Part shown: piece by piece, positions 20,580 to 34,459 of the stretch | Numbering within the stretch: position 1 is the stretch's first letter | How the letters are laid out: each line of letters begins with the position of its first letter | NCBI RefSeq assembly: GCF_000272005.1 | Contig: NZ_AKKU01000026.1 | Coordinates: 310,001 to 374,000 of the forward strand | DNA: 64,000 nt | Direction: 5' to 3' | Origin: Alishewanella agri BL06 | Lineage (GTDB): Bacteria; Pseudomonadota; Gammaproteobacteria; Enterobacterales; Alteromonadaceae | Position numbers and translations under genes: made by a program | Notes under the pieces: generated by a model | What the model saw: only the letters and a program-made list of their open reading frames with translations | Told to the model about the DNA's origin: nothing | The model's database searches: none

Positions 20580-20580
20580 G

Positions 20581-20591
20581 GCTGAATTCAG
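20581..20591. promoter_or_regulatory. Copy of an 11-bp motif shared with the start of the signalling operon
   Basis: GCTGAATTCAG (palindromic core CTGAATTCAG) is identical to 15729-15739. It lies immediately after the cyclase stop and 42 bp before the PepSY gene. Confidence 0.3.
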
Positions 20592-20632
20592 TCAGGCCTG
20601 TTAGAGTCGAAGGGGCAATAAGGAGCGTTAAA

Positions 20633-20890
20633 ATGAAATCATTAATGTTAGGTACTTTCTTATTAACGAGTATTTCTTTTCTGGCTCTGGCCGACGACGA
20701 CCGGCCACCAGCCGATGCATTGAAATTATCTGAGGTGGTGCAAAAGCTGGAGCAGCAGGGCTTCTATCCCATCGTCGATATTGAGTTTGATGATGGCGTT
20801 TGGGAAATCGATGCCTACCGTGGCGCAGATAAGCGTGAGTTACAGGTTGATCCGCGTACCGGCAAGGTATTACGCGATCGGGATGATTAA
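20633..20890 (+). CDS. Small periplasmic PepSY-domain protein
   Basis: 85 residues. A signal peptide of about 20 residues ends at ALA (cleavage before Asp21 or nearby). One PepSY repeat follows: LKLSEVVQKLEQQGFYPIVDIEFDDGVWEIDAYR, then ELQVDPRTGKVLRDRDD. Such small PepSY proteins are often encoded with two-component genes and are thought to restrain proteases or bind metals, but the function here is unknown. AAGGAGCG precedes the ATG. Confidence 0.8.
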   Translation: MKSLMLGTFLLTSISFLALADDDRPPADALKLSEVVQKLEQQGFYPIVDIEFDDGVWEIDAYRGADKRELQVDPRTGKVLRDRDD

Positions 20891-20922
20891 TCCACTCTTA
20901 CAATCCACTTTGGCGTTGCGGG

Positions 20923-20956
20923 GGTTGGCGGTTATCACCGCCAACCTTAAGTTTTA
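20923..20956 (+). terminator. Terminator between PepSY gene and luxS
   Basis: GGTTGGCGG pairs with CCGCCAACC around a 6-nt loop, followed by TTAAGTTTT. It lies in the 70-bp gap between two convergent genes and serves mainly the plus strand, as no T-run is seen on the other side. Confidence 0.6.
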
Positions 20957-20960
20957 GTGG

Positions 20961-21470
20961 TTACAGCTTTTGCAATACTTCGGCGGGTAACGCCAGCTCG
21001 TCGTTTCTGTTCACACCTACACCGCGCGTTAAAATGTTCTGCGCGATCTGTTTCGCTTCATCCAGCGAATGCATTTGCGCGGTGCCACACTGATAAATAT
21101 TCAGTTCCGGAATATCATTCTGACTGGCGACTTTTAACACATCATCCATCGCCGCCTGCCAGGCTTTAGCTACCCGTTGTTCATCCGGTGTACCAATCAG
21201 GCTCATATAAAAGCCGGTACGGCAGCCCATAGGCGAAATATCAATAATTTCCACATCCTGGCCATTTAAGTGGTCACGCATAAAACCGGCGAACAGATGC
21301 TCCAGCGTGTGAATGCCTTTTTCAGACAGAATTTCTTCATTTGGCACGCAAAAACGTAGATCAAATACGGTAATGGCATCGCCTTTGGGCGTAGTCATTT
21401 TTTTAGCAATGCGCACGGCCGGCGCTTTCATAATGGTATGGTCAACAGTAAAACTATCGAGTAATGGCAT
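20961..21470 (-). CDS. luxS: S-ribosylhomocysteine lyase
   Basis: 169 residues from the ATG whose complement is at 21468-21470, preceded by AGGAT on the minus strand; the open frame runs on to 21653 but that extension is not family-like. It cleaves S-ribosylhomocysteine to homocysteine and DPD, the precursor of autoinducer-2. Metal ligands are in [10 protein letters not shown] and in the cysteine of [12 protein letters not shown]. The N-terminus [19 protein letters not shown] is typical. It stands alone, divergent from dnaK. Confidence 0.96.
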
Positions 21471-21602
21471 GTCAAATCCTGTAAGCAACTTAGAGATGGT
21501 TTGATTATAGCGCTGGCGGCAGCGGAAAGTTAACCGCTTTTGACCATGACGGCTATAAACAACACAAAATGCATCAAAAGCTAAAATTTTACTTTTGATA
21601 AC

Positions 21603-21632
21603 CTTGAATAGATCAGGGCTAATCCCCACTAA
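21603..21632 (+). promoter_or_regulatory. Heat-shock (sigma-32) promoter of dnaK
   Basis: CTTGAAT (21603-21609) and CCCCACTAA (21624-21632) are spaced by 14 bp, close to the sigma-32 consensus CTTGAAA-N13-17-CCCCATNT. It lies 49 bp upstream of the dnaK ATG, in the divergent luxS-dnaK gap. Confidence 0.8.
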
Positions 21633-21680
21633 TCGGTCATCGCAATGTTTCATTGTTCAGAATATAAGTGGAGAGATGTT

Positions 21681-23585
21681 ATGGGTAGAATTATTGGTAT
21701 TGACTTAGGTACAACCAACTCTTGTGTGGCTATTTTGGATGGTGACAAGCCAAAAGTGCTGGAAAATGCCGAAGGTACACGGACCACGCCTTCCATTATT
21801 GCTTACACCGAAGATGGCGAAGTGTTAGTGGGTCAGCCAGCCAAGCGTCAGGCGGTGACTAACCCAAAAAATACCTTATTCGCTATCAAGCGCTTAATTG
21901 GTCGTCGTTTTGAAGACGAAGAAGTGCAGCGTGATATCAAAATCATGCCATTCCAAATTGTTAAAGCCGATAATGGTGATGCCTGGGTAGAAGTTAAAGG
22001 CAAAAAATTAGCCGCGCCGCAAATTTCAGCGGAAGTGCTGAAAAAGATGAAGAAAACGGCTGAGGATTATCTGGGCGAGCCAGTAACTGCGGCGGTTATC
22101 ACCGTACCGGCATACTTTAACGATGCTCAGCGTCAGGCGACCAAAGACGCCGGCCGGATTGCCGGTTTAGATGTAAAACGTATTATCAACGAGCCAACTG
22201 CTGCGGCACTGGCTTACGGTATGGATAAGAAGAAAGGCGATACCAAGGTTGCGGTATATGACCTGGGTGGTGGTACTTTCGATATTTCTATTATCGAAAT
22301 TGATGATGTTGATGGCGAGCAAACCTTTGAAGTGTTGGCTACCAATGGTGATACGCACTTAGGTGGTGAAGACTTCGATAACCGCGTGATCAACTATCTG
22401 GTTGAAGAATTTAAGAAAGAGCAAGGTATTGACCTGCGTAACGATCCGCTGGCGATGCAGCGTTTAAAAGAAGCCGGTGAAAAAGCCAAAATTGAACTGT
22501 CTTCTGCGTCACAAACGGAAGTGAACCTGCCTTATATCACGGCTGATGCCACAGGTCCGAAACACCTGAACATCAAATTAACCCGTGCTAAGCTGGAATC
22601 ACTGGTCGACGATTTAGTGCAGCGTACTTTAGAGCCGCTGAAAAAAGCGCTGGCTGATGCTGACTTAAGCGTAAGTGACATCAACGAGATTATTTTGGTT
22701 GGTGGTCAGACGCGGATGCCAAAAGTACAAGAAGCGGTAACGGCTTTCTTTGGTAAAGAACCACGTAAAGACGTGAACCCGGATGAAGCGGTAGCTGTGG
22801 GTGCGGCTATTCAGGGTGCGGTATTATCTGGTGATGTGAAAGACGTTTTACTGTTAGACGTTACGCCTCTGTCACTGGGTATCGAAACCATGGGTAGCGT
22901 GATGACCACGCTGATTGAGAAGAACACCACTATCCCGACTAAGAAGTCTCAGGTGTTCTCAACTGCTGATGATAACCAGTCTGCAGTAACTATTCATGTG
23001 CTGCAGGGTGAGCGTAAACGCGCCTCTGACAATAAGTCATTAGGTCAGTTTAACTTAGAAGGTATTCGTCCGGGTCGCCGCGGCGAGCCACAAATCGAAG
23101 TAACCTTCGATCTGGATGCGGATGGTATTCTGCATGTATCGGCCAAAGACAAAGATACTGGCAAAGAGCAGAAGATCACTATCAAAGCCTCTTCTGGCTT
23201 AAGCGAAGAAGAAATCCAGAAAATGGTGCGTGACGCTGAAGCGCATGCTGAAGAAGATAAAAAGTTCGAAGAGCTGGTGCAGGCGCGTAACCAGGCCGAT
23301 GCCATGGTTCACGCTACCCGTAAGCAAATCGAAGAAGTCGGTTCAGCGTTAGCGGCTAACGACAAAGAAGCTATCGAGACCGCTATTGGCGAGCTGGAAA
23401 AAGCCATCAAGGGTAATGATAAGTCAGAGATCGAAGCCAAAACTCAGGCGTTGATCCAGGCTTCTCAGAAACTGATGGAAGCCCAGCAGGCGAAAGGCCA
23501 GGCCGGTGACGCTGGCCAGCAAGCCGGTGGCGCTGACGACGTAGTCGATGCGGAATTCGAAGAAGTTAAAGACGACAAAAAGTAA
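21681..23585 (+). CDS. dnaK: Chaperone protein DnaK (Hsp70)
   Basis: 634 residues from the ATG at 21681 preceded by GGAGAG; the extra 12 codons upstream are not conserved. The three Hsp70 signatures are visible: [29 protein letters not shown] and [13 protein letters not shown]. The substrate-binding domain starts after [13 protein letters not shown], and the tail ends in an acidic [14 protein letters not shown]. It is an ATP-dependent protein-folding chaperone that works with DnaJ and GrpE. Followed by dnaJ. Confidence 0.98.
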
Positions 23586-23598
23586 TTAACGCTAAAAC

Positions 23599-23620
23599 AG
23601 GCTGCAGCTTTGGCTGCAGC
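23599..23620 (+). other. Hairpin in the dnaK-dnaJ gap
   Basis: GGCTGCA pairs with TGCAGCC in the 62-bp intergenic region, without a following T-run. It is probably a processing or attenuating stem that lowers dnaJ expression relative to dnaK. Confidence 0.4.
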
Positions 23621-23647
23621 CGTTAACTGAGAAATAAGCACAGATCT

Positions 23648-24787
23648 ATGTCCAAGCGTGACTATTATGAAGTACTAGGTGTCGCTAAAGGCGCCGATGA
23701 TAAAGACATCAAAAAGGCTTATAAACGCCTCGCCATGAAATTTCACCCGGATCGTACCCAGGGTGATAAAGATATGGAAGAGAAGTTTAAAGAAGTACAG
23801 GAAGCCTATGAAGTTTTGTCTGACGAGCAGAAGCGGGCAGCCTACGACCGTTACGGCCATGCCGGAGTAGATCCGAATCGTGGTGCCGGTGGTTTTGGTG
23901 GCGCCGGTGGTGCCGACTTTGGCGATATCTTTGGCGATGTGTTCGGCGATATCTTTGGTGGTGGCCGCCGCGGTGGTGGTTCGCGCTCGCAACGAGGCGC
24001 TGACCTGCGCTACAACCTGGAGTTGTCGCTGGAAGAAGCGGTTAAAGGTAAATCGGTCGATATTAAAGTACCGACCATGGTCAGCTGTGACAGTTGTGAT
24101 GGTTCAGGCGCCAAAAAAGGCACTTCAGCCAAGAGCTGTCCAACCTGTAACGGTGCCGGTCAGGTTACGATGCGTCAGGGCTTTTTTGCGGTACAGCAAA
24201 CCTGTCCTACCTGTTCTGGACGTGGCAAAATTATTCCGGATCCCTGCAGCAAGTGTCATGGTGAAGGTCGCGTAGAAAAGACCAAAACGCTGTCGGTTAA
24301 GATCCCTGCCGGTGTTGATACTGGGGATCGCATTCGCTTATCTGGCGAAGGTGAAGCCGGCATGCATGGTGCACCTGCGGGTGATCTCTATGTCCAGGTG
24401 TCAGTAAAAGCGCACCCGATCTTCCAACGTGATGGCAATAATCTGTACTGTGAAGTGCCGATGAGCTTCGCTACCGCCGCCTTAGGTGGCGAGATTGATG
24501 TGCCAACGCTGGATGGCCGCGTTAAGCTGAAGATCCCGGCAGAAACGCAAACTGACAAGATGTTCCGCTTGCGTGGCAAGGGCGTACAGTCGGTGCGTGG
24601 CGGCGGTGTCGGTGACCTGGTGTGTAAGGTGGTGATTGAAACCCCGGTTAAGCTATCAGAGCGGCAAAAAGAGCTGCTGCGCCAACTGGATGAAAGTATG
24701 ACCGGCGAAGGCGAAGCCACACACCGGCCGAAGTCAAAAGGCTTTTTCGATGGTGTGAAAAAATTCTTTGACGATCTAACCAGCTAG
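23648..24787 (+). CDS. dnaJ: Chaperone protein DnaJ (Hsp40)
   Basis: 379 residues. The N-terminal J domain (5-70) has the HPD motif (KFHPDRTQ). A Gly/Phe-rich linker with [15 protein letters not shown] follows, then a zinc domain with four repeats ([32 protein letters not shown]) and the C-terminal substrate-binding domain. It stimulates the DnaK ATPase and delivers substrates. It ends in a strong terminator. Confidence 0.98.
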
Positions 24788-24815
24788 TTTGACGGTTTAA
24801 ACAATGAAATCACAG

Positions 24816-24843
24816 AAACCACCCGTTTTGGGTGGTTTTTTTA
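24816..24843 (+). terminator. Rho-independent terminator after dnaJ
   Basis: AACCACCC and GGGTGGTT pair around a short GTTTT loop and run into seven T residues. It begins about 30 bp after the dnaJ stop. Confidence 0.9.
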
Positions 24844-24895
24844 TGCTTAAAAGGTACACTTAAGCCACAGTGTTATTGTTTCCAACGGACTGCTT

Positions 24896-25699
24896 ATGTT
24901 AAAGAAAATTCTGGTTACTGCGGTATGCGCGCTGTTGCTTGGTTCTTGTGCCGAGTCTCCTACCGGCCGCAAGCAGGTGATGCTATTTGATAACAAGCAA
25001 TTGAATACTATGGGCGCCCAGACTTTCGAGCAAATGAAGGCGGAGCAAAAGATTAGTAGCGATCCGGCGACTAACCGTTATGTGCAGTGTGTCGCCAATG
25101 CTTTATTAAAAGTGACACCAGATGAATACCAGCAATACAACTGGGAAATCGTAGTATTTGATAGCGAGCAGGTAAATGCCTTTGCCTTACCTGGTGGCAA
25201 GATGGGCGTTTATACCGGCCTGATAAAAATCGCAGAAACGCCTGCCCAGCTGGCAGCTGTAGTAGGCCATGAAATTGGTCACGTTATGGCCGGGCATAGC
25301 AATGAACGCTTATCAACCAATCAGTTTTTACAGCTTGCCTTAGCTCTTGGTGACGCCGGCACTAAAGCTTATGGTGTGCGTTATCAGCAAGAGTTAATGG
25401 CGGCGCTGGGGCTGGGGGCTCAGGTTGGCGTAGCCTTACCTTTTAGCCGCACCCATGAAACCGAAGCCGATGTAATAGGTCTGGAATTAATGGCCAAAGC
25501 CGGGTTTAATCCTGAAGATTCGGTTGCCTTATGGCGCAATATGGCAGCGGCAGGCAGTGGCGGTGTGCCACAGTTTTTATCCAGCCACCCGGTGCCAGAT
25601 ACCCGCATTCGCACTTTACAGCAAAAAATGCCAGAAGCTGCTACACTTTATCAGCAGCGAAGACAGCAAGGAAATTTGCCAGCTTGCCGCAAGCCTTGA
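24896..25699 (+). CDS. M48 family zinc metalloprotease, lipoprotein
   Basis: 267 residues. A lipoprotein signal ends at Cys18 (LLGSC), so it is probably anchored in the periplasm-facing membrane. The zinc motif HEIGH lies at residues 125-129, in VVGHEIGHVMAGHSNER, and the third ligand region is TEADVIGLELMAKAGFNPE. Compact single-domain M48 lipoproteins such as LoiP/YggG and YcaL degrade misfolded envelope proteins. It resembles these, without the TPR tail of BepA. Which paralogue it is cannot be decided by eye. Confidence 0.88.
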   Translation: MLKKILVTAVCALLLGSCAESPTGRKQVMLFDNKQLNTMGAQTFEQMKAEQKISSDPATNRYVQCVANALLKVTPDEYQQYNWEIVVFDSEQVNAFALPGGKMGVYTGLIKIAETPAQLAAVVGHEIGHVMAGHSNERLSTNQFLQLALALGDAGTKAYGVRYQQELMAALGLGAQVGVALPFSRTHETEADVIGLELMAKAGFNPEDSVALWRNMAAAGSGGVPQFLSSHPVPDTRIRTLQQKMPEAATLYQQRRQQGNLPACRKP

Positions 25700-25729
25700 T
25701 GTCAGTATTTTTTACAGTTTAAATGGTAA

Positions 25730-25749
25730 AGCAGCTTCTTGAAGCTGCT
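25730..25749 (+). terminator. Stem-loop after the M48 protease gene
   Basis: AGCAGCTTC and GAAGCTGCT form a perfect 9-bp stem with a two-base gap, 31 bp after the stop. No T-run follows, so termination is uncertain. It separates the protease gene from the next cassette. Confidence 0.4.
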
Positions 25750-25840
25750 AGCTGCAAGTGAATCAAAGGCTTGCATATGATGGTGTGATACTTGCATCGT
25801 CAACAGTATTATCGATATTGGTTAACCTACGGAAGTTGCT

Positions 25841-26446
25841 ATGCAAGGACATGACCAGAAAGAACAAGATACCGCCAAACTAAATCGGCGTAAGTTTTTA
25901 ACCCGGGCCGGTGCTGGCTTGGTTATAGCGTCATTACCGGCGAAGTCTGTGTGGGCTGGTTCCAACGGTTTAGCGGGATCAATTATAGCGTCAGGACATG
26001 GCTCTGATTTCGCAGGTGGAAAACCGCTGGTGCTAAAATCATCCGGATTTTTCGGTAATTCGGGTGGTGGTTCTAAAGCCAGTTCTGGTTTTGGTATTAC
26101 GTCAAATTACTTCTGTAATATTTTCCCCGGCAATCCGCTACCTACGATTGCACCAGAAGATCTTCAAAAGGAAGATAAGTCTCTTGAAACGTTGACGATG
26201 AGAGATATTCTGCAGACCAACAACCTGAAGTTCCATGGTGATGGTAAGGTCAATCGCTTTATGGCAGCGACCTATATGAACGCAATTTTTCATGGTCAGT
26301 TTGGTATTTATTTCCCGGTAATTGGAAGTTCTCCAACGTTTCAAACCCCCCAAGATCTTGCAGAATACTTGTATCTTAACGGCCTAAACAATGGAGAGTT
26401 ATTTGGTTTAGAATTACAGGAGCTGTTTGCAGCCTATGCCGTCTAG
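25841..26446 (+). CDS. Tat-signal protein of unknown function; candidate substrate of the HprK-related cassette
   Basis: 201 residues. A twin-arginine signal is clear: NRRKFLT with Arg16-Arg17, a hydrophobic stretch, and a probable cleavage after VWA (Ala39). The segment after it (about 40-85) is rich in Gly and Ser, including KSSGFFGNSGGGSKASSG. The rest (about 85-201) is a soluble domain I do not recognise, with one cysteine (NYFCNIF) and a region MRDILQTNNLKFHGDGKVNRFMAATYMNAIF. It is the first gene of a four-gene group with a PqqD-like protein, a kinase and a nucleotidyltransferase. A role as exported target of those enzymes is inferred from order and the Tat signal. Confidence 0.7.
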   Translation: MQGHDQKEQDTAKLNRRKFLTRAGAGLVIASLPAKSVWAGSNGLAGSIIASGHGSDFAGGKPLVLKSSGFFGNSGGGSKASSGFGITSNYFCNIFPGNPLPTIAPEDLQKEDKSLETLTMRDILQTNNLKFHGDGKVNRFMAATYMNAIFHGQFGIYFPVIGSSPTFQTPQDLAEYLYLNGLNNGELFGLELQELFAAYAV

Positions 26447-26462
26447 ATGGAACCTGGATTAA

Positions 26463-26663
26463 GTGTTATTGAAGCAGGAAGTCCTTGTTAAAAGTTTTAA
26501 GGACGGTTCAGGTATTGTGCTTTTTGACACTAACACCGGTGAAACTATCGGATTTTCGAAGTCTTTTGAAGAGTTGGTCGCTTTGGAGTTAGATCGTCAT
26601 CTTGAAAAAGAGCTGAAACCCTATGAGTACAAGCTATTTAAAAAGATGCTAACTCAGCAATGA
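26463..26663 (+). CDS. PqqD-like small protein of the HPr-rel-A type cassette
   Basis: 66 residues from a GTG start; a TAA codon lies immediately upstream in frame, so the protein cannot begin earlier. The pattern IVLFDTNTGETIGFSKSFEELVALEL resembles the winged-helix PqqD fold (a hydrophobic strand, a turn with NTGE, a strand, then an acidic helix). PqqD-like proteins bind leader peptides for modifying enzymes. It lies 16 bp after the Tat-signal gene and 22 bp before the kinase. The ribosome site is weak, so it may be translated by coupling. It is shorter than typical family members, hence moderate confidence. Confidence 0.6.
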   Translation: MLLKQEVLVKSFKDGSGIVLFDTNTGETIGFSKSFEELVALELDRHLEKELKPYEYKLFKKMLTQQ

Positions 26664-26685
26664 ACGCCACTTTGACTCGAATCTG

Positions 26686-27561
26686 ATGACAGAAAATTTT
26701 CGTCTGCGACTCCCGCCTTTCAACTTTTCTATTCAATCTGATATCGGATTGGTTAGCGAGAATATCCATAAAATTTACGCTCCAGCGCTGGAAATATTTC
26801 GCCCCGTTTATCCTGATTATTGTCTAAGTGTAAAGCAAACTGCCGGGCTACGTAGGTATTGGAAACCTCAAGCCCGATTCCTTGCTGATCAACAGGAGCC
26901 TTTTCAACCTTTAACTTTGCAGCAAGGTTACGCAATGTTGGAGTGGGGCATGAATTGGTGTATCGCCAGTCACGAAATGCAATATGTCATTTTACACTCT
27001 GCTGTTTTAGCGAAAAATGATAAAGCGATAGTCTTTCCAGCACCACCAGGCTCTGGGAAAAGTACCTTAACAGCCTACCTGGCATTCAATGGCTGGCGTT
27101 TGTTATCCGATGAAATGGCGCTGATTTTACCTTACAGTAAGAGGGTTCAACCTTTTGTACGACCAATTTGCCTTAAGAATCAATCCATAAATTTGGCAAA
27201 AAAATGGTTTCCGGACGGTGTTTTCTCAACTATTGCATCGGACACTCATAAAGGCGATGTGATTCACCTTTCTCCGCCACTTAACAGTTGGCTGGGTGCT
27301 GAACAACAGGCTGAAATTGTTGGAATAGTTTTCCCGCAGTACGTCCCACAAGTTGAATTAGATATTTATTCTCTTAATCAAACTCAGGCATTTATGCAAC
27401 TTGCACAAAACGCATTTAACTTCGGCGTTATCGGTCGTGAGGGTTTTGAGACTTTAACAACTATTATTGAGCAAGTGCCGGTTTTCGATATTCAGTATAA
27501 TGATCTGGTTGCGGTAGAGGATTTTTTAACAAACGAGGTGTTGTCTCGTGTCGCTTCGTGA
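26686..27561 (+). CDS. HprK-related kinase A family protein
   Basis: 291 residues. A P-loop at residues 117-127 (FPAPPGSGKSTL, with Gly122, Lys125 and Ser126) is followed by GWRLLSDEMALIL. This is the same pattern as the HPr kinase/phosphorylase fold and the HprK-related kinase A group. The upstream ILHSAVLAKNDKAIV strand is also typical. It lacks the N-terminal domain of true HprK, and no HPr or PTS gene is near, so the target is not HPr by context. In paeninodin-type lasso clusters related kinases phosphorylate a peptide serine; a similar role on the neighbouring Tat-signal protein is an inference. Confidence 0.8.
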   Translation: MTENFRLRLPPFNFSIQSDIGLVSENIHKIYAPALEIFRPVYPDYCLSVKQTAGLRRYWKPQARFLADQQEPFQPLTLQQGYAMLEWGMNWCIASHEMQYVILHSAVLAKNDKAIVFPAPPGSGKSTLTAYLAFNGWRLLSDEMALILPYSKRVQPFVRPICLKNQSINLAKKWFPDGVFSTIASDTHKGDVIHLSPPLNSWLGAEQQAEIVGIVFPQYVPQVELDIYSLNQTQAFMQLAQNAFNFGVIGREGFETLTTIIEQVPVFDIQYNDLVAVEDFLTNEVLSRVAS

Positions 27562-28654
27562 GCTAATAGTGCGAATTTTCGCTCGGCCAGTGCTTGCTTT
27601 ATCGATTAATGAGCCGCAGTGGGTAGAGATAATTCGTATCTTGCGTCAACAGCAACAACTGGCCCGTTATGCTTACCTATTTCGGCAAGCAGATGTTTTT
27701 ATGCAGCTGCCTCAGTACGCTCGCCATCATTTGCGCAACGCTGAAATTATTGCTGATAAACAATTACGTCAAGTTAGTTCTGAAGCTATTGAACTTACGA
27801 AGTTACTGGCGCCATTGAATGTCAGGCCAGTATTTCTCAAAGGCGCTGCCTATGCATTAATGCGGGAACTGCCGGCCGGAATCGGACGTACCTTTAGCGA
27901 CCTGGATATTCTGGTTCCCAAAGAACAAATTACAGCAGTAGAGCAACGGCTGTCGGTATTTGGCTTTTTACCTGAGCCGGTGAGTGCTTATGATCAGCAT
28001 TATTACCGTAAATGGACGCATGAGATCCCACCGTTACGGCATCATAGCCGCGGCACTATTCTGGATATTCATCATAATTTGATCCCCCCCGTTTCGGGCC
28101 GGGCACCGGATATTCGCCGTTTCTGGCAGCATCTTGATCTGACGGACGATGGCTATCAGGTACTGAGCTTACCGGCTATGACCTTACATAGTCTGATCCA
28201 TCTATTTTTTAATGAGGACTTCAAAAAGGGCTTTCGGGATCTGACCGATCTGCATTTGTTATTTGCTGGTTTTAGCGAGCAAGATTGGGAGCAATTGCTG
28301 CAACTGGCCGAGCAGACCGGTTTTATGTTTGAATTGATGCTGGCTTGCCGCTATAGCCATTCACTGCTAACTACACCCATTCCTGCTTGGGTGATGCAAC
28401 AAACTGAGCAGTACCAGCCGTCAAAACTGCGCCTACAGCTACTGGATTTTATCTTCCTGCGATTGTTAAGTCCGCAGCACCCGTTATTAAACACTTATCT
28501 GGATCAGCTGGCTGCATTGTTAGCACTGATCCGTGGTCACTGGCTGAAGATGCCGCCGCAGATCCTGCTTGGGCACCTGAGTGTAAAAGCCTTTTGTGCA
28601 ATCCGAGACGCGTTATTTGGCAAACACCAATTTAGCCCGAAACGACCGGGGTAG
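27548..28654 (+). CDS. Nucleotidyltransferase family protein (NTP_transf_5 type)
   Basis: 368 residues from a GTG start that overlaps the kinase gene by 14 bp, so translation is coupled. The nucleotidyltransferase core is visible as VFLKGAAYALMREL followed by GRTFSDLDILVPK, the metal-binding Asp pair being in DLD; a second acidic strand is ILDIHHNL. Pfam PF14907-like proteins are common in lasso-peptide and HprK-related clusters, where some modify phosphorylated peptides. Here it is the last gene of the cassette. Its 3' end overlaps the convergent antiporter gene by 23 bp. Confidence 0.82.
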   Translation: MSLRELIVRIFARPVLALSINEPQWVEIIRILRQQQQLARYAYLFRQADVFMQLPQYARHHLRNAEIIADKQLRQVSSEAIELTKLLAPLNVRPVFLKGAAYALMRELPAGIGRTFSDLDILVPKEQITAVEQRLSVFGFLPEPVSAYDQHYYRKWTHEIPPLRHHSRGTILDIHHNLIPPVSGRAPDIRRFWQHLDLTDDGYQVLSLPAMTLHSLIHLFFNEDFKKGFRDLTDLHLLFAGFSEQDWEQLLQLAEQTGFMFELMLACRYSHSLLTTPIPAWVMQQTEQYQPSKLRLQLLDFIFLRLLSPQHPLLNTYLDQLAALLALIRGHWLKMPPQILLGHLSVKAFCAIRDALFGKHQFSPKRPG

Positions 28655-29957
28655 TTTGTCGGCGCAGTAAAACCACAGTTAAAGCGATCATCAATAGGAT
28701 CAAACAATAATAGTTGTATGTGATGACCTGCCACGGCGATAAGCCAAAACTTGCCCCGAGCAGTAAGGCCTGAGCACCATAGGGTACTAATCCCTGACTG
28801 ATACAGGCAAAGATATCCAGCAAACTGGCGCTGCGCCGTGGGCTGATTTGATGTTGCTGTGCCAGGTTGCGGCTAACATCTCCGGTTAATACTATAGCCA
28901 CCGTATTATTGGCAATACAGAGGTTGCTGATAAAGGCCAAGGCGGCAATGGCCAGCTGCTGGGCTTTATTGCCGGCAAGTCGCAGCTTAGCGGTAATAGA
29001 TTGGATTTTATTAGAAATCCACTGTAAACCACCTTGTTGTTTAATAAATTCACTGAGGCTACTTACCAGCATCGCCAACAGAAAGATCTCCTGCACATTA
29101 GCAAAACCGGTCGCAATATCCTTACCCAGGTTGCTGATTGCATAATCGGCAAGCAGACTACCCTGCAGCGCAGCCAGGGCGATACCGAGCAGCAATACGA
29201 CAAACACATTGAGACCTAAGACTGCCAGTACCAGAATGGCGGCATAGGGCAAAATACCCGTCCAGTTATAGGCTTCGGTGCTAATTTGCGGGGCATCTGA
29301 AGTCAGTAGGCTATAGGCCAGAATGGTCAGTAAGGCCGCAGGCAACGCAATTTTGATATTTTCTTTAAATTTATCAGCCATATTGGCGCCCTGGGTGCGG
29401 GTAGCAGCAATAGTGGTATCTGAGATAATCGATAAGTTATCTCCGAACATAGCGCCACTAAGCAGTACCCCAGCGACAATCGCAGGGTTCAGTTCCGCCT
29501 GATTGGCGATGCCCACGGCTATCGGCGCCAGGGCGCCGATGGTCCCCATCGAGGTACCCATAGCAGTAGAAACCAGAGCGGCAATAATAAATAAACCCGG
29601 TAAAATAAAAGCAGGTGGAATAATACTTAAACCGGCGTTGACTACGGCATCGACACCACCACTGGCGGTCGCCACGCTGGCGAAGGCGCCGGCTAATAAG
29701 TAAATCAGACACATGGTAATAATATTGCTATTACCGGCGCCTTTAATGATCACGTCGATAGATTGCGTCAGAGGGGCGCGATGCAGCCACACAGCCAGTA
29801 TCAATGCCGGCAGAATGGCGACATGACCAGGCAGTTGGTAGAACGCGTACTCAACATTCTGGCTTTGAAAATACAGGCCACTGCCTAAAAACAGCAGCAC
29901 AAAACACAGTAATGGCAGTAACGAGCGCTTCGCGCCGGATGTAATGATAGTGTCCAC
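28632..29957 (-). CDS. NhaC-family Na+/H+ antiporter
   Basis: 441 residues from a GTG at 29957 with GAGG nine bases upstream; the frame is open to 30014, but the extra residues are charged and not family-like. About ten to twelve membrane segments are seen. The motif VSTAMGTSMGTIGALAPIAVGIA and the GDNLSIISDTTIAATRTQG stretch are characteristic of NhaC/ion-transporter superfamily antiporters. It would export sodium (or exchange an acid anion) in the inner membrane. Substrate is inferred from family only. Confidence 0.85.
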   Translation of the reverse strand: MDTIITSGAKRSLLPLLCFVLLFLGSGLYFQSQNVEYAFYQLPGHVAILPALILAVWLHRAPLTQSIDVIIKGAGNSNIITMCLIYLLAGAFASVATASGGVDAVVNAGLSIIPPAFILPGLFIIAALVSTAMGTSMGTIGALAPIAVGIANQAELNPAIVAGVLLSGAMFGDNLSIISDTTIAATRTQGANMADKFKENIKIALPAALLTILAYSLLTSDAPQISTEAYNWTGILPYAAILVLAVLGLNVFVVLLLGIALAALQGSLLADYAISNLGKDIATGFANVQEIFLLAMLVSSLSEFIKQQGGLQWISNKIQSITAKLRLAGNKAQQLAIAALAFISNLCIANNTVAIVLTGDVSRNLAQQHQISPRRSASLLDIFACISQGLVPYGAQALLLGASFGLSPWQVITYNYYCLILLMIALTVVLLRRQTTPVVSG

Positions 29958-30109
29958 TAGAGCAACCTCAGCAAAATGGCAGCGCAATATATAGATGTCC
30001 AGACGTCTTGTCAATCTGGCGTGAATTCAGGCATGTTTAAGTTAGGATTTAGTTAGCTTGCCCCTGTGTTGTTTAACATAGGGTATTTCGACTAAAAAAC
30101 ATACTGTTA

Positions 30110-30128
30110 GATGATAAGAATCATTATT
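30110..30128. promoter_or_regulatory. Fur-box-like site upstream of the MFS-PlsC gene
   Basis: GATGATAAGAATCATTATT matches the 19-bp Fur consensus GATAATGATAATCATTATC at 15 of 19 positions, counted by hand. It ends 20 bp before the start codon at 30149, where a bound repressor would block transcription or initiation. Confidence 0.5.
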
Positions 30129-30148
30129 GACTTAACGCGGAGGCACGG

Positions 30149-32020
30149 ATGGCAGCAAAGCAGATTATTGGTAGCAAGCGATTTCTGCCATTCTTTTTGA
30201 CCCAGGCGCTGGGCGCCTTTAACGACAATGTCTTTAAAAATGCGCTGATGTTGCTGCTGACCTTTAGCGCGGCCAGTGCTATGCCCTGGAGTGTTGATGT
30301 CAGTATGAATCTGGCCGCCGGGCTCTTTATTCTGCCGTTCTTACTGTTTTCAGCTACCGCCGGCACCCTCGCTGATAGTGTTTGTAAAACCCGGCTGATC
30401 CGCTGGCTTAAATTACTGGAAATCGGTCTGATGCTATTGGCGGCAGCCGCATTCTTCTTTGAACAATATTTGTGGTTGCTCGGACTGTTGTTTTTGATGG
30501 GGAGTCAATCTGCCTTTTTCGGCCCGGTTAAATATGCCATTTTGCCGCAGTTGTTAACTGATCGACAACTATTGGCAGGTAATGCCTGGGTAGAAATGGG
30601 AACCTTTATTGCAATTTTGTTGGGTACCATTGTCGGAGGCTTACTGGTTGGTATAGCCAATGCCATGCTGTGGATCGGCAGTTTAGTGGTGTTGTTTGCC
30701 GTGTTTGGCTATCTGGCCAGTTTACAGATCCCGGAAGTTGGGGTCGTCGCTGCCGGTCCGCGCTTTCAATTTGCGCCCTGGCGGCAAAGCCTGGAAACCG
30801 TCCGCATCAGCTATCAAAACCGTACCCTGTATCTGGCAATTATGGCAATTAGCTGGTTTTGGTTTTTAGGAGCCAGCTATCTGACCCAGTTTCCGAATTT
30901 TACCAAAAGCCATTTAGCCGGTGATAACACTGTAGTAACGGCCTTGCTGGTGGCCTTTTCGGTTGGGGTAGGCATAGGTTCGATGCTTTGTGAGCGTTTA
31001 TCCGGCGAAAAAGTGGAATTGGGGCTGGTGCCCATTGGTTCTATTGGTCTGACGGTATTTGGTATCAGTTTGTATTTTAGTACGCCGGCTGTTATGCCAG
31101 CGGAGTTGTTATCACTAACTCAGTTTTTGGCCACTGCCTTTGGCTGGTGGGTACTTTTTGATTTAACTTTGGTCGGTGTTTTTGGCGGGCTCTTTATTGT
31201 GCCGCTGTATGCAATGTTACAGCAGCGGGCCGAGCCGGCGCAGCGGGCGAGGATGATCGCCGCCAATAATATTTTTAACGCGCTCTTTATGGTGGTTGCG
31301 GCGCTGGCGGGGATGTTATTTCTGGCTGGGTTTGGCTTAAGTATCCCAGAGTATTTTCTGATCCTGGCCATTATGAATGCGGTGGTCGCGCTCTATGTTT
31401 ACAGCACTGTGCCGGAATTTGTGCTGCGGTTTGTGATTTATCTGCTTAGCCATACTATGTACCGGGTGAAAGCACAGGAGCTGGAACATATTCCCGAGGA
31501 GGGGCCGGCGGTACTGGTGGCCAACCATGTTAGCTATGTTGATGCGCTGTTGATTGGCGGTGCAGTACGCCGGCCGGTGCGTTTTGTGATGTATAAAGGG
31601 ATTTACCAGATTCCGGTGGCGAACTGGCTGTTTAAAGCCGCCAAAACCATCCCAATTTGTGGCAAGCAACAGGACGAGAAGATGTATGAGGCGGCCTTTG
31701 CGGCAATTCGACGTGAGCTTTCAGAGGGCAATCTGGTTTGCATTTTCCCGGAAGGACGTTTAACAAAGGATGGTGAGATTGATGCCTTTCGCACCGGCAT
31801 TGAACGGATTATCGCCGAAACCCCGGTGCCGGTGATTCCGATGGCGCTGCAAGGCCTGTGGGGCTCTTTTTTTAGTCATCATGGCGACGGCGCTTTTAAG
31901 TTTAAGGGGCGGTTTTGGTCGAAGATTAAGCTGGTGGTTGGCGAGCCGGTGGCAGCTTCTGCAGTAACCGCAGCGAACCTGGAACAGCAGGTCAGAGCGT
32001 TAAGAGGTGCTGAGCGCTAG
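30149..32020 (+). CDS. MFS transporter fused to a PlsC-type acyltransferase
   Basis: 623 residues with a strong GCGGAGG ribosome site. Residues 1-410 form an MFS transporter of the lysophospholipid transporter (LplT) type, beginning LPFFLTQALGAFNDNVFKNALMLLL. Residues 420-623 form a 1-acylglycerol-3-phosphate acyltransferase domain with HxxxxD (NHVSYVD, His460-Asp465) and FPEGR (Glu535-Arg537). In E. coli LplT flips lysophospholipid inward and Aas re-acylates it. This fusion joins the two steps but lacks the acyl-ACP synthetase domain of Aas. A lysophospholipid recycling role is inferred. Confidence 0.88.
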   Translation: MAAKQIIGSKRFLPFFLTQALGAFNDNVFKNALMLLLTFSAASAMPWSVDVSMNLAAGLFILPFLLFSATAGTLADSVCKTRLIRWLKLLEIGLMLLAAAAFFFEQYLWLLGLLFLMGSQSAFFGPVKYAILPQLLTDRQLLAGNAWVEMGTFIAILLGTIVGGLLVGIANAMLWIGSLVVLFAVFGYLASLQIPEVGVVAAGPRFQFAPWRQSLETVRISYQNRTLYLAIMAISWFWFLGASYLTQFPNFTKSHLAGDNTVVTALLVAFSVGVGIGSMLCERLSGEKVELGLVPIGSIGLTVFGISLYFSTPAVMPAELLSLTQFLATAFGWWVLFDLTLVGVFGGLFIVPLYAMLQQRAEPAQRARMIAANNIFNALFMVVAALAGMLFLAGFGLSIPEYFLILAIMNAVVALYVYSTVPEFVLRFVIYLLSHTMYRVKAQELEHIPEEGPAVLVANHVSYVDALLIGGAVRRPVRFVMYKGIYQIPVANWLFKAAKTIPICGKQQDEKMYEAAFAAIRRELSEGNLVCIFPEGRLTKDGEIDAFRTGIERIIAETPVPVIPMALQGLWGSFFSHHGDGAFKFKGRFWSKIKLVVGEPVAASAVTAANLEQQVRALRGAER

Positions 32021-32042
32021 TCGAAATAAGCAGCAAACAATA

Positions 32043-32060
32043 GTTAAATGGCCATTTAAC
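32043..32060. promoter_or_regulatory. 18-bp perfect palindrome upstream of yqhD
   Basis: GTTAAATGGCCATTTAAC is a perfect inverted repeat 66 bp before the yqhD ATG and 22 bp after the preceding stop. Its shape suggests a dimeric repressor or activator site. The regulator is not identified in the window. Confidence 0.5.
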
Positions 32061-32082
32061 TTGATCCGGGATGCCCGAAACC

Positions 32083-32117
32083 CCATAGCATTGAGACATT
32101 TCGTCTGACAGCTATGG
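32083..32117 (+). other. Stem-loop overlapping the yqhD ribosome binding site
   Basis: CCATAGC (32083-32089) pairs with GCTATGG (32111-32117), and an inner AGAC/GTCT pair supports the fold. The 3' arm overlaps the GGAG ribosome site at 32116-32119, so the stem could partly hide it. Confidence 0.35.
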
Positions 32118-32126
32118 AGCTTGTGC

Positions 32127-33281
32127 ATGTTTAACTTTTCCTATCAAAACGCCACTCGTATTGTGTTTGGTAAAGACCAAATCAGTGAACTAGCGCATCT
32201 GGTACCCAAAGATAAAAAAGTGCTGCTGATCTACGGCGGCGGTTCGATTAAACGTAACGGTGTGTATCAGCAAGTTGTGAATGCGCTGTCAGGGTTGAGT
32301 GTGGTTGAGTTTGCCGGGGTTGAACCCAATCCTGCTTTTGAGACGCTGATGCGGGCGACAACGTTAGTGAAAGAGCAGGGGATTGATTATATTCTGGCAG
32401 TTGGGGGTGGCAGTGTCGTTGATGGTGCCAAATTTGTTGCTGCTGCTGCGGTATTCCAAGGCGATCCTTGGGACATTCTGGCTAAAGGTGCCAAGATAAC
32501 TGCAGCTTTACCGCTTGGCTGCGTTCTTACACTGCCAGCTACCGGCTCTGAGAGCAATGGTAATTCAGTTGTTACCCGCTATGAAACCCAGCAAAAACTG
32601 GCCTTTAGCAGTGAGCTGGTGTTCCCGCAATTTGCTATTTTGGATCCGACTGTCACGTACAGTTTGCCACCGAAGCAGGTTGCCAATGGCGTGGTTGATG
32701 CTTTTGTGCATGTGATGGAGCAGTATCTGACCTATCCGGTCAATGCACCGGTACAGGACCGTTTTGCTGAAGGCTTACTGCAAACCCTGATTGAAGAGGG
32801 CCCGAAAGCGTTGGCGGAACCAGAAAACTATGACGTGCGCGCTAATGTGATGTGGGCCGCGACCATGGCACTGAATGGCCTGATTGGCCAGGGCGTGCCG
32901 CAGGATTGGGCCACTCATATGATTGGCCATGAAATTACTGCGCTCTATGGCTTGGATCATGCACAAACCCTGGCGATAGTGTTACCGGCACTGATGCAGC
33001 AACAACGCGCCACTAAAGGCGCCAAGTTACTGCAATATGGTCAGCGGGTCTGGCAACTACAGCATCAGGACCAAGAGCGGCTGATTGACGAGGCCATCAG
33101 CCACACCCGGCAATTCTTTGAGCGGATGGGCGTACCTACCCGTCTGGCTGACTATGGTATCAAAGCCGATGCCGTCGATAAGCTGGTCGACAAACTGGTG
33201 CAGCATAAGATGATTAAGCTCGGTGAACACCGGGATATCACGCCGGAAGTGAGCCGCAGTATCCTGCAACGGGCGCTGTAA
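32127..33281 (+). CDS. yqhD: Iron-containing alcohol dehydrogenase, YqhD type
   Basis: 384 residues from the ATG at 32127 with GGAG seven bases upstream; a TTG two codons earlier overlaps less well. It is closely similar in pattern to E. coli YqhD: TRIVFGK, IYGGGSIKRNGVYQQV, VEPNPAFETLM, AVGGGSVVDGAKF, CVLTLPATGSESN, NGVVDAFVHVMEQY and the metal-ligand region GVPQDWATHMIGHEITALYGLDHAQTLAIVLPAL. These NADPH enzymes reduce toxic aldehydes such as methylglyoxal and lipid-peroxidation products. It stands alone between two terminators. Confidence 0.92.
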   Translation: MFNFSYQNATRIVFGKDQISELAHLVPKDKKVLLIYGGGSIKRNGVYQQVVNALSGLSVVEFAGVEPNPAFETLMRATTLVKEQGIDYILAVGGGSVVDGAKFVAAAAVFQGDPWDILAKGAKITAALPLGCVLTLPATGSESNGNSVVTRYETQQKLAFSSELVFPQFAILDPTVTYSLPPKQVANGVVDAFVHVMEQYLTYPVNAPVQDRFAEGLLQTLIEEGPKALAEPENYDVRANVMWAATMALNGLIGQGVPQDWATHMIGHEITALYGLDHAQTLAIVLPALMQQQRATKGAKLLQYGQRVWQLQHQDQERLIDEAISHTRQFFERMGVPTRLADYGIKADAVDKLVDKLVQHKMIKLGEHRDITPEVSRSILQRAL

Positions 33282-33290
33282 CTTAGAATA

Positions 33291-33328
33291 AACAGCCGTT
33301 TTTCCTTAAAGACGGCTGTTTTGCTTTT
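33291..33328 (+). terminator. Rho-independent terminator after yqhD
   Basis: AACAGCCGT pairs with ACGGCTGTT, and TTGCTTTT follows. It begins 10 bp after the stop. Confidence 0.85.
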
Positions 33329-33399
33329 GTAATCTGCCGGCTTTTGGTCTAATAGCGGTCATTAAGAACAATGATTGATTGAAGAGTGCAGAGCATAAT

Positions 33400-34209
33400 A
33401 TGACCTCAATTGGGATCTTTGGTGCCAATGGCCGTATGGGCCGGGCTTTGGTGACAGTAGCAAAAGAACAGCAATTACAGCTCACAGCAGCCACAGTAAG
33501 ATCCGGTTCAGAGTTAGTGGGGCTTGATGCCGGCGAACTGGCCGGCTGCGGTAAAATCGGGCTGGCGCTAAGCGCTACTGCCGCCGCGGCAGTGCAGCAA
33601 GCTGACGTCTGGGTCGATTTTACCATGCCCGAGCCGATGTTAGCCCAGCTGGCACTCTGCGTGGCTGAACGTAAAGCCATGGTGATTGGCGTCACCGGCT
33701 TAACCGATGCCCAGTATCAGCTGATTCAGCAAGCCAGCACGCAGATCCCGATTGTTTGGGCGCCTAATATGAGTGTTGGCGTGAATTTGCTGCTACATCT
33801 GGCACAAACCGCTGCCAAGGTAATGGGGAATACGGCGGATATTGAGATTATCGAAGCGCACCACCGTTTTAAAAAGGACTCGCCGTCGGGTACCGCAATG
33901 GCAATAGGTGCCAGCATTGCCCGTAGCCTTGGCCGTAACCTGAACGAGGTTGCCGTCTATGGTCGCGAAGGCATGATTGGTGAGCGGCCGCAACAAACTA
34001 TCGGCTTTGCTACAGTAAGGGGCGGCGACATTATTGGCGATCATACCGCGCTGTTTGCAGATCTTGGTGAAAGACTGGAAATTACCCATAAAGCATCAAG
34101 CCGTAACACCTTTGCGCAAGGCGCACTGCGCGCTGCTTTATGGTTGCAAAATAAGCAGCCAGGACTTTATACCATGCAACAAGTGCTGGGTTTGCCAAAG
34201 TTAGATTAA
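33400..34209 (+). CDS. dapB: 4-hydroxy-tetrahydrodipicolinate reductase
   Basis: 269 residues from the ATG at 33400; a TTG at 33379 would add seven residues but has no better ribosome site. The NAD(P)H fold starts IGIFGANGRMGRAL. The substrate region is EIIEAHHRFKKDSPSGTAMAIG, with the paired histidines and catalytic lysine. It acts in lysine and peptidoglycan precursor synthesis. It precedes carA-carB as in many Gammaproteobacteria, but a terminator separates them. Confidence 0.96.
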   Translation: MTSIGIFGANGRMGRALVTVAKEQQLQLTAATVRSGSELVGLDAGELAGCGKIGLALSATAAAAVQQADVWVDFTMPEPMLAQLALCVAERKAMVIGVTGLTDAQYQLIQQASTQIPIVWAPNMSVGVNLLLHLAQTAAKVMGNTADIEIIEAHHRFKKDSPSGTAMAIGASIARSLGRNLNEVAVYGREGMIGERPQQTIGFATVRGGDIIGDHTALFADLGERLEITHKASSRNTFAQGALRAALWLQNKQPGLYTMQQVLGLPKLD

Positions 34210-34214
34210 ACTTT

Positions 34215-34256
34215 TGCGGCATTTAACAAAAAAACGTGTTAAAGCCGCTATTTTTG
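34215..34256 (+). terminator. Rho-independent terminator after dapB
   Basis: GCGGC-A-TTTAAC pairs with GTTAAA-GCCGC, with one bulged base, and TATTTTTGT follows. It starts 6 bp after dapB. Confidence 0.85.
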
Positions 34257-34275
34257 TAAAAACAAAAAATAGTCA

Positions 34276-34304
34276 TAGCCAAATTAGCGCTTATCACCTA
34301 AAAT
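34276..34304 (+). promoter_or_regulatory. Candidate carAB promoter
   Basis: TAGCCA (34276-34281) and TAAAAT (34299-34304) are spaced by 17 bp, matching 4 and 5 of 6 consensus bases. It lies after the dapB terminator and about 155 bp before carA, leaving a long untranslated leader. No clear ArgR or PurR box was recognised. Confidence 0.35.
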
Positions 34305-34401
34305 AAGCAGGTTTGCCCGTACGCTGGAAGATGTCCTGGTTTTGTTATCATTACCGGGAACTGTTAGCGCACGGTAAATACGGGTATCAGAATTTTAGGT
34401 C

Positions 34402-34446
34402 AAAACGGGTTGTAAAACGCCACTGGTTTTCGCCCGTTTTTTGCTG
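34402..34446 (+). terminator. Terminator-like hairpin in the carA leader (possible attenuator)
   Basis: AAAACGGG pairs with CCCGTTTT, and inside it AAAAC pairs with GGTTTT, giving a long stem that ends in a run of six T. It ends about 15 bp before the carA start codon and just ahead of its GGAGG. A strong terminator in this place suggests attenuation of carAB. No obvious alternative antiterminator was worked out. Confidence 0.55.
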
Positions 34447-34459
34447 TTTGGAGGTTATT

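What the first reader, a model, noticed from the sequence alone, without database searches (positions are those of the whole stretch)
25841..28654. Tat-signal protein + PqqD-like + HprK-related kinase + nucleotidyltransferase cassette
Four closely packed genes form what looks like an HPr-rel-A type modification system of unknown product. Known knowledge: PqqD-fold proteins deliver leader peptides, and HprK-like kinases and nucleotidyltransferases decorate some lasso peptides (paeninodin, pseudomycoidin). Here there is no lasso cyclase or peptidase, and the first gene encodes a Tat-exported protein. The inference is phosphorylation, perhaps followed by sugar or nucleotide transfer, on a folded exported protein rather than a RiPP peptide. 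The genes look more AT-rich than their neighbours.
Basis: partly seen in the sequence, partly recalled or inferred. Interest (0 to 1): 0.78.

Follow-up and report, generated by a model that had tools for sequence, protein, structure and literature searches.

The report
Tat-exported protein with its own kinase
A small gene cassette in an environmental bacterium appears to decorate one highly variable exported protein with phosphate before it leaves the cell, and a shared genetic switch ties it to the machinery that builds the bacterium's slimy outer matrix.

Summary
The cassette is real. Kinase = NCBIfam HprK_rel_A (310 bits, cut-off 200); last gene = PF14907 (144 bits); the PqqD-like gene is divergent and matches no model. 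The Tat gene has no Pfam or NCBIfam family of its own, yet is a near-obligate partner: upstream of the kinase in 76 of 80 named loci, and in 118 related genomes found once each in 48 of 49 kinase-positive and 0 of 69 kinase-negative genomes. Its leader and a Ser-x3-Ser(-x3-Ser) motif are conserved; its mature domain is hypervariable and found no PDB fold match. New: the operon starts with the PEP-CTERM box of Haft 2006 (PrsR site ending TTTACA, 63 nt, sigma-54 site), and all 49 kinase-positive genomes carry PrsK and exosortase XrtA, against 28 and 5 of 69 others. Best reading: the Tat protein is phosphorylated in the cytoplasm, perhaps capped by the nucleotidyltransferase, exported folded, and serves the exopolysaccharide programme. 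Modification, sites and matrix role are inferred, not shown. New variant of kinase + recognition element + NTP-transferase systems, on an exported protein.

The parts
25700..25716 (+). Motif 1 of a PEP-CTERM box (predicted PrsR site), TGTCAGTATTTTTTACA
   Evidence: found 63 nt before the sigma-54 site; the strict pattern occurs once in the whole genome. The 17-nt length, TTTACA end and spacing agree with PMC1569441 section 7
25781..25795 (+). Sigma-54 -24/-12 promoter TGG-N8-TTGC
   Evidence: the same pattern lies upstream of the Tat gene in 68 of 124 loci, shuffles mean 3.7, maximum 9
25841..26446 (+). Tat-signal protein, 201 aa; the predicted substrate and only exported product
   Evidence: no Pfam or NCBIfam family of its own
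25841..25957 (+). Constant leader, residues 1-39: twin-arginine signal RRKFL...LPAKSVWA
   Evidence: RR in 48 of 48 aligned and in all 62 rows of A3
25979..26005 (+). Conserved serine motif S47-x3-S51-x3-S55, candidate modification site
   Evidence: S47, S51, S55 invariant in 62 sequences; S-x3-S-x3-S in 92 of 124 loci against 7% of shuffled segments
26006..26443 (+). Hypervariable mature domain, mostly helical
   Evidence: Model with block pLDDT about 76-95 from residue 61; no PDB fold match; mean normalised similarity 0.21 within the genus against 0.57 for the leader
26463..26663 (+). Short divergent PqqD-like protein (66 aa, GTG start), presumed recognition element
   Evidence: Position and the pattern F-DGSG-VLFD--TGET shared with loci whose protein matches TIGR04353; no HMM hit of its own
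26686..27561 (+). HprK-related kinase A
   Evidence: TIGR04352 310 bits; P-loop GSGKST at 27049-27066; GKST and [ST]DE in 47 of 47 related kinases
27548..28654 (+). PF14907 nucleotidyltransferase, overlapping the kinase gene by 14 nt
   Evidence: 144 bits; D-x-D of the nucleotidyltransferase fold at 27899-27907
24896..25699 (+). Upstream boundary of the slot: M48 metalloprotease (LoiP-like)
   Evidence: PF01435; conserved flank in all 27 kinase-positive genomes of the genus
28632..30014 (-). Downstream boundary of the slot: NhaC-like antiporter (name by eye)
   Evidence: Conserved flank, 77-96% identity

Best explanation
It is an HPr-rel-A cassette whose dedicated substrate is the Tat protein encoded first in the operon. 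PrsK-PrsR and sigma-54 switch the operon on together with PEP-CTERM genes (promoter shown by sequence; regulation inferred). In the cytoplasm the PqqD-like protein presents the Tat protein to the HprK-related kinase, which phosphorylates serines of the conserved Ser-x3-Ser-x3-Ser motif just behind the signal peptide (inferred). The PF14907 enzyme then adds a sugar or nucleotide to the phosphate, as reported for pseudomycoidin (inferred). The folded, modified protein leaves through Tat, the export route suited to proteins finished in the cytoplasm (inferred), and acts in or on the XrtA-type exopolysaccharide matrix (inferred from co-occurrence and co-regulation). The mature domain is the variable, outward-facing part; leader and serine motif are the constant part handled by the enzymes.
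For: Kinase and nucleotidyltransferase families. Tat gene upstream of the kinase in 47 of 47 loci L031-L077 and 76 of 80 named loci. In 118 genomes the Tat leader profile finds exactly one gene in 48 of 49 kinase-positive genomes, at the kinase locus, and none in 69 kinase-negative ones; the one exception, G064, has a decayed locus. PEP-CTERM box: sigma-54 site in 68 of 124 loci (shuffles mean 3.7), TTTACA at the published spacing in 46 of these 68 (shuffles mean 2.4, maximum 8) with spacer 65.3 +/- 9.2 nt (published 62.8 +/- 10.6). In the genus 25 of 27 cassettes have the strict box. The strict box occurs in 53 of 118 genomes, all 53 PrsK-positive (77), none of the 41 others; reversed-pattern control 0. 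XrtA in 49 of 49 kinase-positive against 5 of 69; outside the own genus 22 of 22 against 5 of 65, Fisher 3.6e-16. XrtA/PrsK/PrsR/PrsT-type genes near many loci. Serine motif invariant in 62 sequences and its first two serines in 44 distant ones.
Against: No modification has been observed. Class-wide the XrtA link is weaker: 22 of 27 kinase-positive genomes have XrtA over cut-off; G169 and G174 have no exosortase hit. In 4 of 80 named loci no Tat gene was seen upstream. The third serine is missing or displaced in 32 of 124 loci and the motif is absent in the Sphingomonas version. The window's own two PEP-CTERM genes carry no recognisable box, and the Vibrio plasmid locus shows none by eye. The window's own PqqD-like protein matches no PqqD model. 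A global test did not support co-variation of mature domain with PqqD or kinase N-terminus (partial Mantel 0.04 and 0.06, p 0.27 and 0.16).
Confidence: 0.6

Rival explanations
1. RiPP-like precursor: the Tat-like N-terminus is a leader, and the product is a short modified peptide cut from the protein.
For: Kinase, recognition element and NTP transferase are the tailoring set of paeninodin-like lasso peptides and LPP peptides. Sub-threshold relatives of the kinase sit next to short RR-leader peptides of 61-81 aa (L079, L081, L083).
Against: The mature part is 140 or more residues and predicted as a confident folded domain. No peptidase, cyclase or peptide exporter was seen in the cassette or recurring among neighbours. 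Hypervariable domain behind a constant leader is not the RiPP pattern of a short core.
Confidence: 0.12
2. The kinase and nucleotidyltransferase act on another target (for example an exopolysaccharide enzyme or lipid), and the Tat protein is only co-regulated cargo of the same programme.
For: The regulon also contains PEP-CTERM genes. Four named loci keep PqqD-kinase-NTP without an adjacent Tat gene.
Against: One Tat gene per genome, strictly tied to the kinase; operon order Tat-PqqD-kinase-NTP with short gaps; PqqD-like proteins elsewhere bind peptide substrates.
Confidence: 0.2
3. The Tat protein is a polymorphic effector (bacteriocin-like toxin, phage or kin recognition tag), and the modification serves as self-marking or activation.
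For: Same chromosomal slot in all 27 kinase-positive genomes of the genus with very different alleles; cassette swap between L040 and L042 confined to mature domain, PqqD and kinase N-terminus.
Against: No immunity gene in the cassette; one copy per genome; regulation with PEP-CTERM genes suggests a matrix role. Variability alone does not show recognition.
Confidence: 0.08

Closest known systems
HPr-rel-A system (NCBIfam TIGR04352 HprK-related kinase A, TIGR04353 PqqD family peptide chaperone)
   Same: Kinase over the curated cut-off; PqqD-like gene before it, nucleotidyltransferase after it; annotated the same way on plasmid records.
   Different: No Tat component has a model in NCBIfam release 20 as scanned here; on the two plasmid records the gene is called hypothetical protein. 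The promoter and the XrtA link were found in none of the papers searched.
Paeninodin and pseudomycoidin lasso-peptide tailoring (PadeK/ThcoK-type HPr kinase homologue, PsmN-type nucleotidyltransferase; the protein names are recalled)
   Same: HPr-kinase homologue phosphorylates a serine; nucleotidyltransferase adds hexoses to the phosphate (PMC8498205, passages).
   Different: No lasso genes; substrate is a 201-residue Tat-signal protein; candidate serines lie behind the signal peptide, not at the C-terminus.
LPP RiPP clusters of Bacillota (LppA, LppK, LppB, LppN)
   Same: HprK-like kinase + discrete recognition element + NTP transferase; LppK adds two phosphates to one serine (PMC13381572, abstract and passages).
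   Different: Peptide precursor, signal-peptidase-like leader peptidase and MsbA-like exporter; none of these here.
PEP-CTERM/EpsH (XrtA) system with PrsK, PrsR, PrsT
   Same: Same promoter architecture and near-complete co-occurrence in the order; genes of this system near many cassettes.
   Different: The Tat protein has no PEP-CTERM domain (TIGR02595 finds only two other genes in this genome) and carries a Tat signal.

Membership tests
HPr-rel-A system | Kinase matching TIGR04352 above cut-off | tested here: met
   310 bits against 200
HPr-rel-A system | PqqD family protein matching TIGR04353 | tested here: not met
   No match for the window's 66-aa protein at E <= 0.1; 11 of 32 equivalents in the alignment match. 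So only the kinase defines membership here
HPr-rel-A system | Nucleotidyltransferase PF14907 in the cassette (recalled as usual, not checked in a family description) | tested here: met
   144 bits
Lasso-peptide or other RiPP cluster | Short precursor peptide with cyclase, leader peptidase or exporter | tested here: inconclusive
   None seen among the listed ORFs at 20000-35000, judged by eye; not scanned with RiPP models across the window
PEP-CTERM protein | C-terminal PEP-CTERM domain TIGR02595 | tested here: not met
   Whole-genome search finds two hits, both on contig C1, none at the Tat gene
PrsR / sigma-54 PEP-CTERM regulon | 17-nt motif 1 ending TTTACA, spacer 32-92 nt, sigma-54 motif 2 | tested here: met
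   Own site with 63-nt spacer; text of PMC1569441 section 7. The published logo itself was not seen
PrsR / sigma-54 PEP-CTERM regulon | Transcription depends on RpoN and PrsR | not testable with these tools
   Needs expression data
Tat substrate | Twin-arginine signal with hydrophobic stretch | tested here: inconclusive
   RR-K-F-L and hydrophobic stretch present; TIGR01409 15.3 bits, just under its 16.7 cut-off; 11 of 51 members hit it at E <= 0.1
HPr kinase fold | P-loop kinase related to HprK | tested here: met
   Profile of 16 kinases matches HprK structures 1jb1 and 2qmh, E 0.0011, over 60 positions; weak and partial

The most novel reading that the evidence does not exclude
A phosphorylated (perhaps phospho-glycosylated) Tat-exported matrix protein whose hypervariable domain serves as a strain identity or partner tag in XrtA-type exopolysaccharide communities, with mature domain, PqqD-like adaptor and kinase N-terminus exchanged between species as one cassette at a fixed locus.
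Probability: 0.15. Interest if true: 0.88.

Novelty: new variant of a known kind. Interest (0 to 1): 0.7.

Why it matters
The HPr-rel-A enzymes have a name but, in the papers searched here, no product. This work proposes the product (one unmodelled Tat protein per genome), a candidate site (the serine motif), a switch (PrsK-PrsR-sigma-54) and a setting (XrtA exopolysaccharide). Each can be tested in non-pathogenic bacteria. If right, HprK-type phosphorylation followed by NTP-transferase chemistry would extend from small RiPPs to folded exported proteins, and give the PEP-CTERM/exosortase field a second, enzymatically decorated class of matrix protein.

Tried and rejected

Rejected: 'mature domain, PqqD-like protein and kinase N-terminus are one specificity unit in general'. 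One clean swap supports it, but over 43 loci the partial Mantel test does not (mature-kinase N 0.06, p 0.16; mature-PqqD 0.04, p 0.27), and the mature domain follows the kinase core better (0.30, p 0.005; 199 permutations). It stays a single natural observation.

Rejected: XrtA is strictly required. True for 49 of 49 in the order-level sample, but 5 of 27 class-level kinase-positive genomes lack XrtA over cut-off.

Limits of the tests: the leader HMM and profile A2 were built partly from the same loci; related loci are not independent, so Fisher values overstate; first-look candidate lists were capped at 48 scored per genome; the TGTCRG half of the box pattern comes from my own alignment of Tat promoters. 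At least one named locus (L108) is the same contig as a relative's locus (L033).
Full report
OBSERVATION. The kinase scores 310 bits with TIGR04352, cut-off 200; the last gene scores 144 bits with PF14907. The 66-aa PqqD-like protein hits nothing, although TIGR04353 hits 11 of 32 proteins in the same position elsewhere. The Tat protein has no family model of its own (51 leader segments; 10 further full-length proteins). The cassette is AT-rich in its first three genes. The window is part of a 3.49-Mb genome, G000:C26; proteins closest to the Tat protein come from Alishewanella, Alkalimonas and Rheinheimera, so the host is Alishewanella- or Rheinheimera-like (inference).

A FIXED SLOT WITH CHANGING CONTENTS. 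TIGR04352 is over cut-off in 49 of 118 related genomes, own included, 27 of them in the own genus. In all 27 the cassette lies between the M48 protease gene and the nhaC-like gene. Against the window, flanks in these loci are 89-98% (DnaK) and 77-96% (NhaC) identical, while the kinases are 34-73% and the nucleotidyltransferases 28-91% identical, and the Tat protein is BLAST-detectable in only five of them. Within the genus the mean normalised similarity is 0.57 for the leader, 0.52 for the kinase core, 0.38 for the nucleotidyltransferase, 0.30 for the kinase N-terminus, 0.21 for the mature domain and 0.10 for the PqqD-like protein (24 loci).

THE TAT GENE IS A STANDING PARTNER. An RR-leader ORF lies upstream of the kinase in 47 of 47 loci L031-L077. 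L078 is decayed: kinase in two frames, and the Tat ORF without leader. Among 80 named loci, mainly Beta- and Gammaproteobacteria with one Malonomonas, an HMM finds it in 75, and L134 has it by eye; in L090, L092, L105 and L115 none was seen, L115 being cut by the contig end. A whole-genome search with the leader profile in 118 genomes gives one hit in each of 48 genomes, all kinase-positive, at the kinase locus; none in the 69 kinase-negative ones. Own-type and beta-type Tat proteins are one family by profile comparison, probability 99%, E 5.7e-18, over leader and mature domain.

ANATOMY OF THE TAT PROTEIN. In 62 own-type sequences with 24% mean column identity, the invariant residues are R16, R17, F19, S36, S47, A50, S51, S55 and P159. 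In 44 beta-type proteins the invariant ones are the two arginines and the first two serines of the same motif, with two nearly invariant cysteines. S-x3-S-x3-S occurs in 92 of 124 loci, 100 if threonine is allowed, and in 7% of shuffled segments. A motif like SPGYWKNH follows in many. AlphaFold2 gives a confident mature domain and a disordered leader, with no PDB match. The Sphingomonas plasmid version keeps a Tat-like leader but lacks the serine motif; the Vibrio alfacsensis plasmid version has it.

CASSETTE SWAP. L040 and L042 are 79-100% identical (mostly above 0.89) in windows on both sides, and 35-47% identical in windows from 5325 to 6000, that is through the mature Tat domain, the PqqD-like gene and the kinase start. 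Identity returns at about kinase residue 58. The leader with its serine motif is the same in both. Other proteins share near-identical leaders with mature parts as low as 21% identical. A general co-variation of these three parts is not supported.

PROMOTER. Haft et al. 2006 (PMC1569441; abstract, section 7 and tables read) describe a site before PEP-CTERM genes of Proteobacteria: a 17-nt motif ending TTTACA, a spacer of 62.8 +/- 10.6 nt, and a sigma-54 motif, with PrsR as the presumed activator. TGG-N8-TTGC lies upstream of the Tat gene in 68 of 124 loci (200 shuffles: mean 3.7, maximum 9). Of these 68, 46 have TTTACA 32-92 nt further upstream (500 shuffles: mean 2.4, maximum 8; the best other arrangement of the same letters, the overlapping ATTTAC, 18); spacer 65.3 +/- 9.2 nt. 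The window's own site has a 63-nt spacer. The strict pattern occurs once in this genome, at the Tat gene. In 118 genomes it occurs in 53, all PrsK-positive, and in none of the 41 PrsK-negative; the reversed pattern never occurs. It precedes the Tat gene in 25 of 27 kinase-positive genomes of the genus. Of 29 fetched sites read, 12 precede a Tat gene, 6 a gene with a PEP-type C-terminus, 9 a gene with the same architecture by eye (small-residue motif, hydrophobic stretch, basic end), and 2 a gene cut by the locus end. Against: the two PEP-CTERM genes of the own genome show no such site in the fetched stretches. PMC9850573 (passages) reports that a PEP-CTERM gene is RpoN-dependent and that its overexpression keeps polymer bound in flocs.

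GENOME PARTNERS. PrsK over cut-off: 77 of 118; XrtA over cut-off: 54 of 118. All 49 kinase-positive genomes have both; among 69 kinase-negative ones 28 have PrsK and 5 have XrtA. Outside the own genus XrtA is in 22 of 22 against 5 of 65. In a class-wide sample of 274 the kinase is over cut-off in 27 and XrtA in 51, both in 22. Of the other five, G125, G302 and G365 have exosortases below cut-off, and G169 and G174 none. Among 101 loci outside the slot, BLAST clusters whose representatives are PrsK, PrsR, the XrtA chain-length protein and PrsT occur in 27, 20, 22 and 13 loci (only representatives were named).

MECHANISM. Shown: families, order, promoter, co-occurrence, conserved and variable parts. 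Inferred: PqqD-like protein as adaptor; phosphorylation of the serine motif; sugar or nucleotide transfer onto the phosphate; Tat export after modification, since the enzymes need cytoplasmic nucleotides; a role in the exopolysaccharide matrix. Precedents on small peptides: PMC8498205 (passages) and PMC13381572 (abstract and passages).

LITERATURE. Searches for HPr-rel-A or HprK-related kinase, PqqD with HprK or Tat signal, the family accessions, and PqqD with HPr kinase and exopolysaccharide returned no paper; papers with PEP-CTERM, PrsK and exosortase did not mention HprK, and those found with exosortase and twin-arginine did not mention HPr kinase. Only an open-licence library was searched, so priority elsewhere is not excluded. 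The free text of the NCBIfam entries was not available.

VERDICT. Observation confirmed; interpretation partly supported and extended. New variant of a known kind; interest 0.7.

Noticed in passing
L079 5407-5616, L081 5179-5424, L083 5228-5413: Kinase relatives below the TIGR04352 cut-off lie next to short RR-leader peptides of 61-81 aa (RR-x-F--KFGKLAA--P then a small Cys/Arg-rich tail), with an NTP-like gene in L079 and L083: a possible sister system with a peptide product.
   Followed up: no
L078 5082-7745 (G064): Decayed cassette: kinase split over two frames and a Tat ORF without its leader, while the nucleotidyltransferase ORF remains; described only.
   Followed up: no
L226 10890-13957 and L227 5218-7841: Cassettes on plasmids of Vibrio alfacsensis and Sphingomonas parapaucimobilis, with the Tat gene annotated as hypothetical protein.
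   Followed up: partly
G009:C4:71-907 and G009:C5:363801-364637: Two contig ends of one genome carry kinase hits with identical scores, probably an assembly overlap rather than two copies.
   Followed up: no
P0038: A 141-aa protein on a 641-base contig joins an unrelated N-terminus to the exact C-terminal 50 or so residues of the window's Tat protein; probably a chimeric contig.
   Followed up: no
34 of 101 loci, representative L131 7037-7819: A trypsin-like protease of the MarP/HtrA type recurs near the cassettes, usually upstream; no role assigned.
   Followed up: partly
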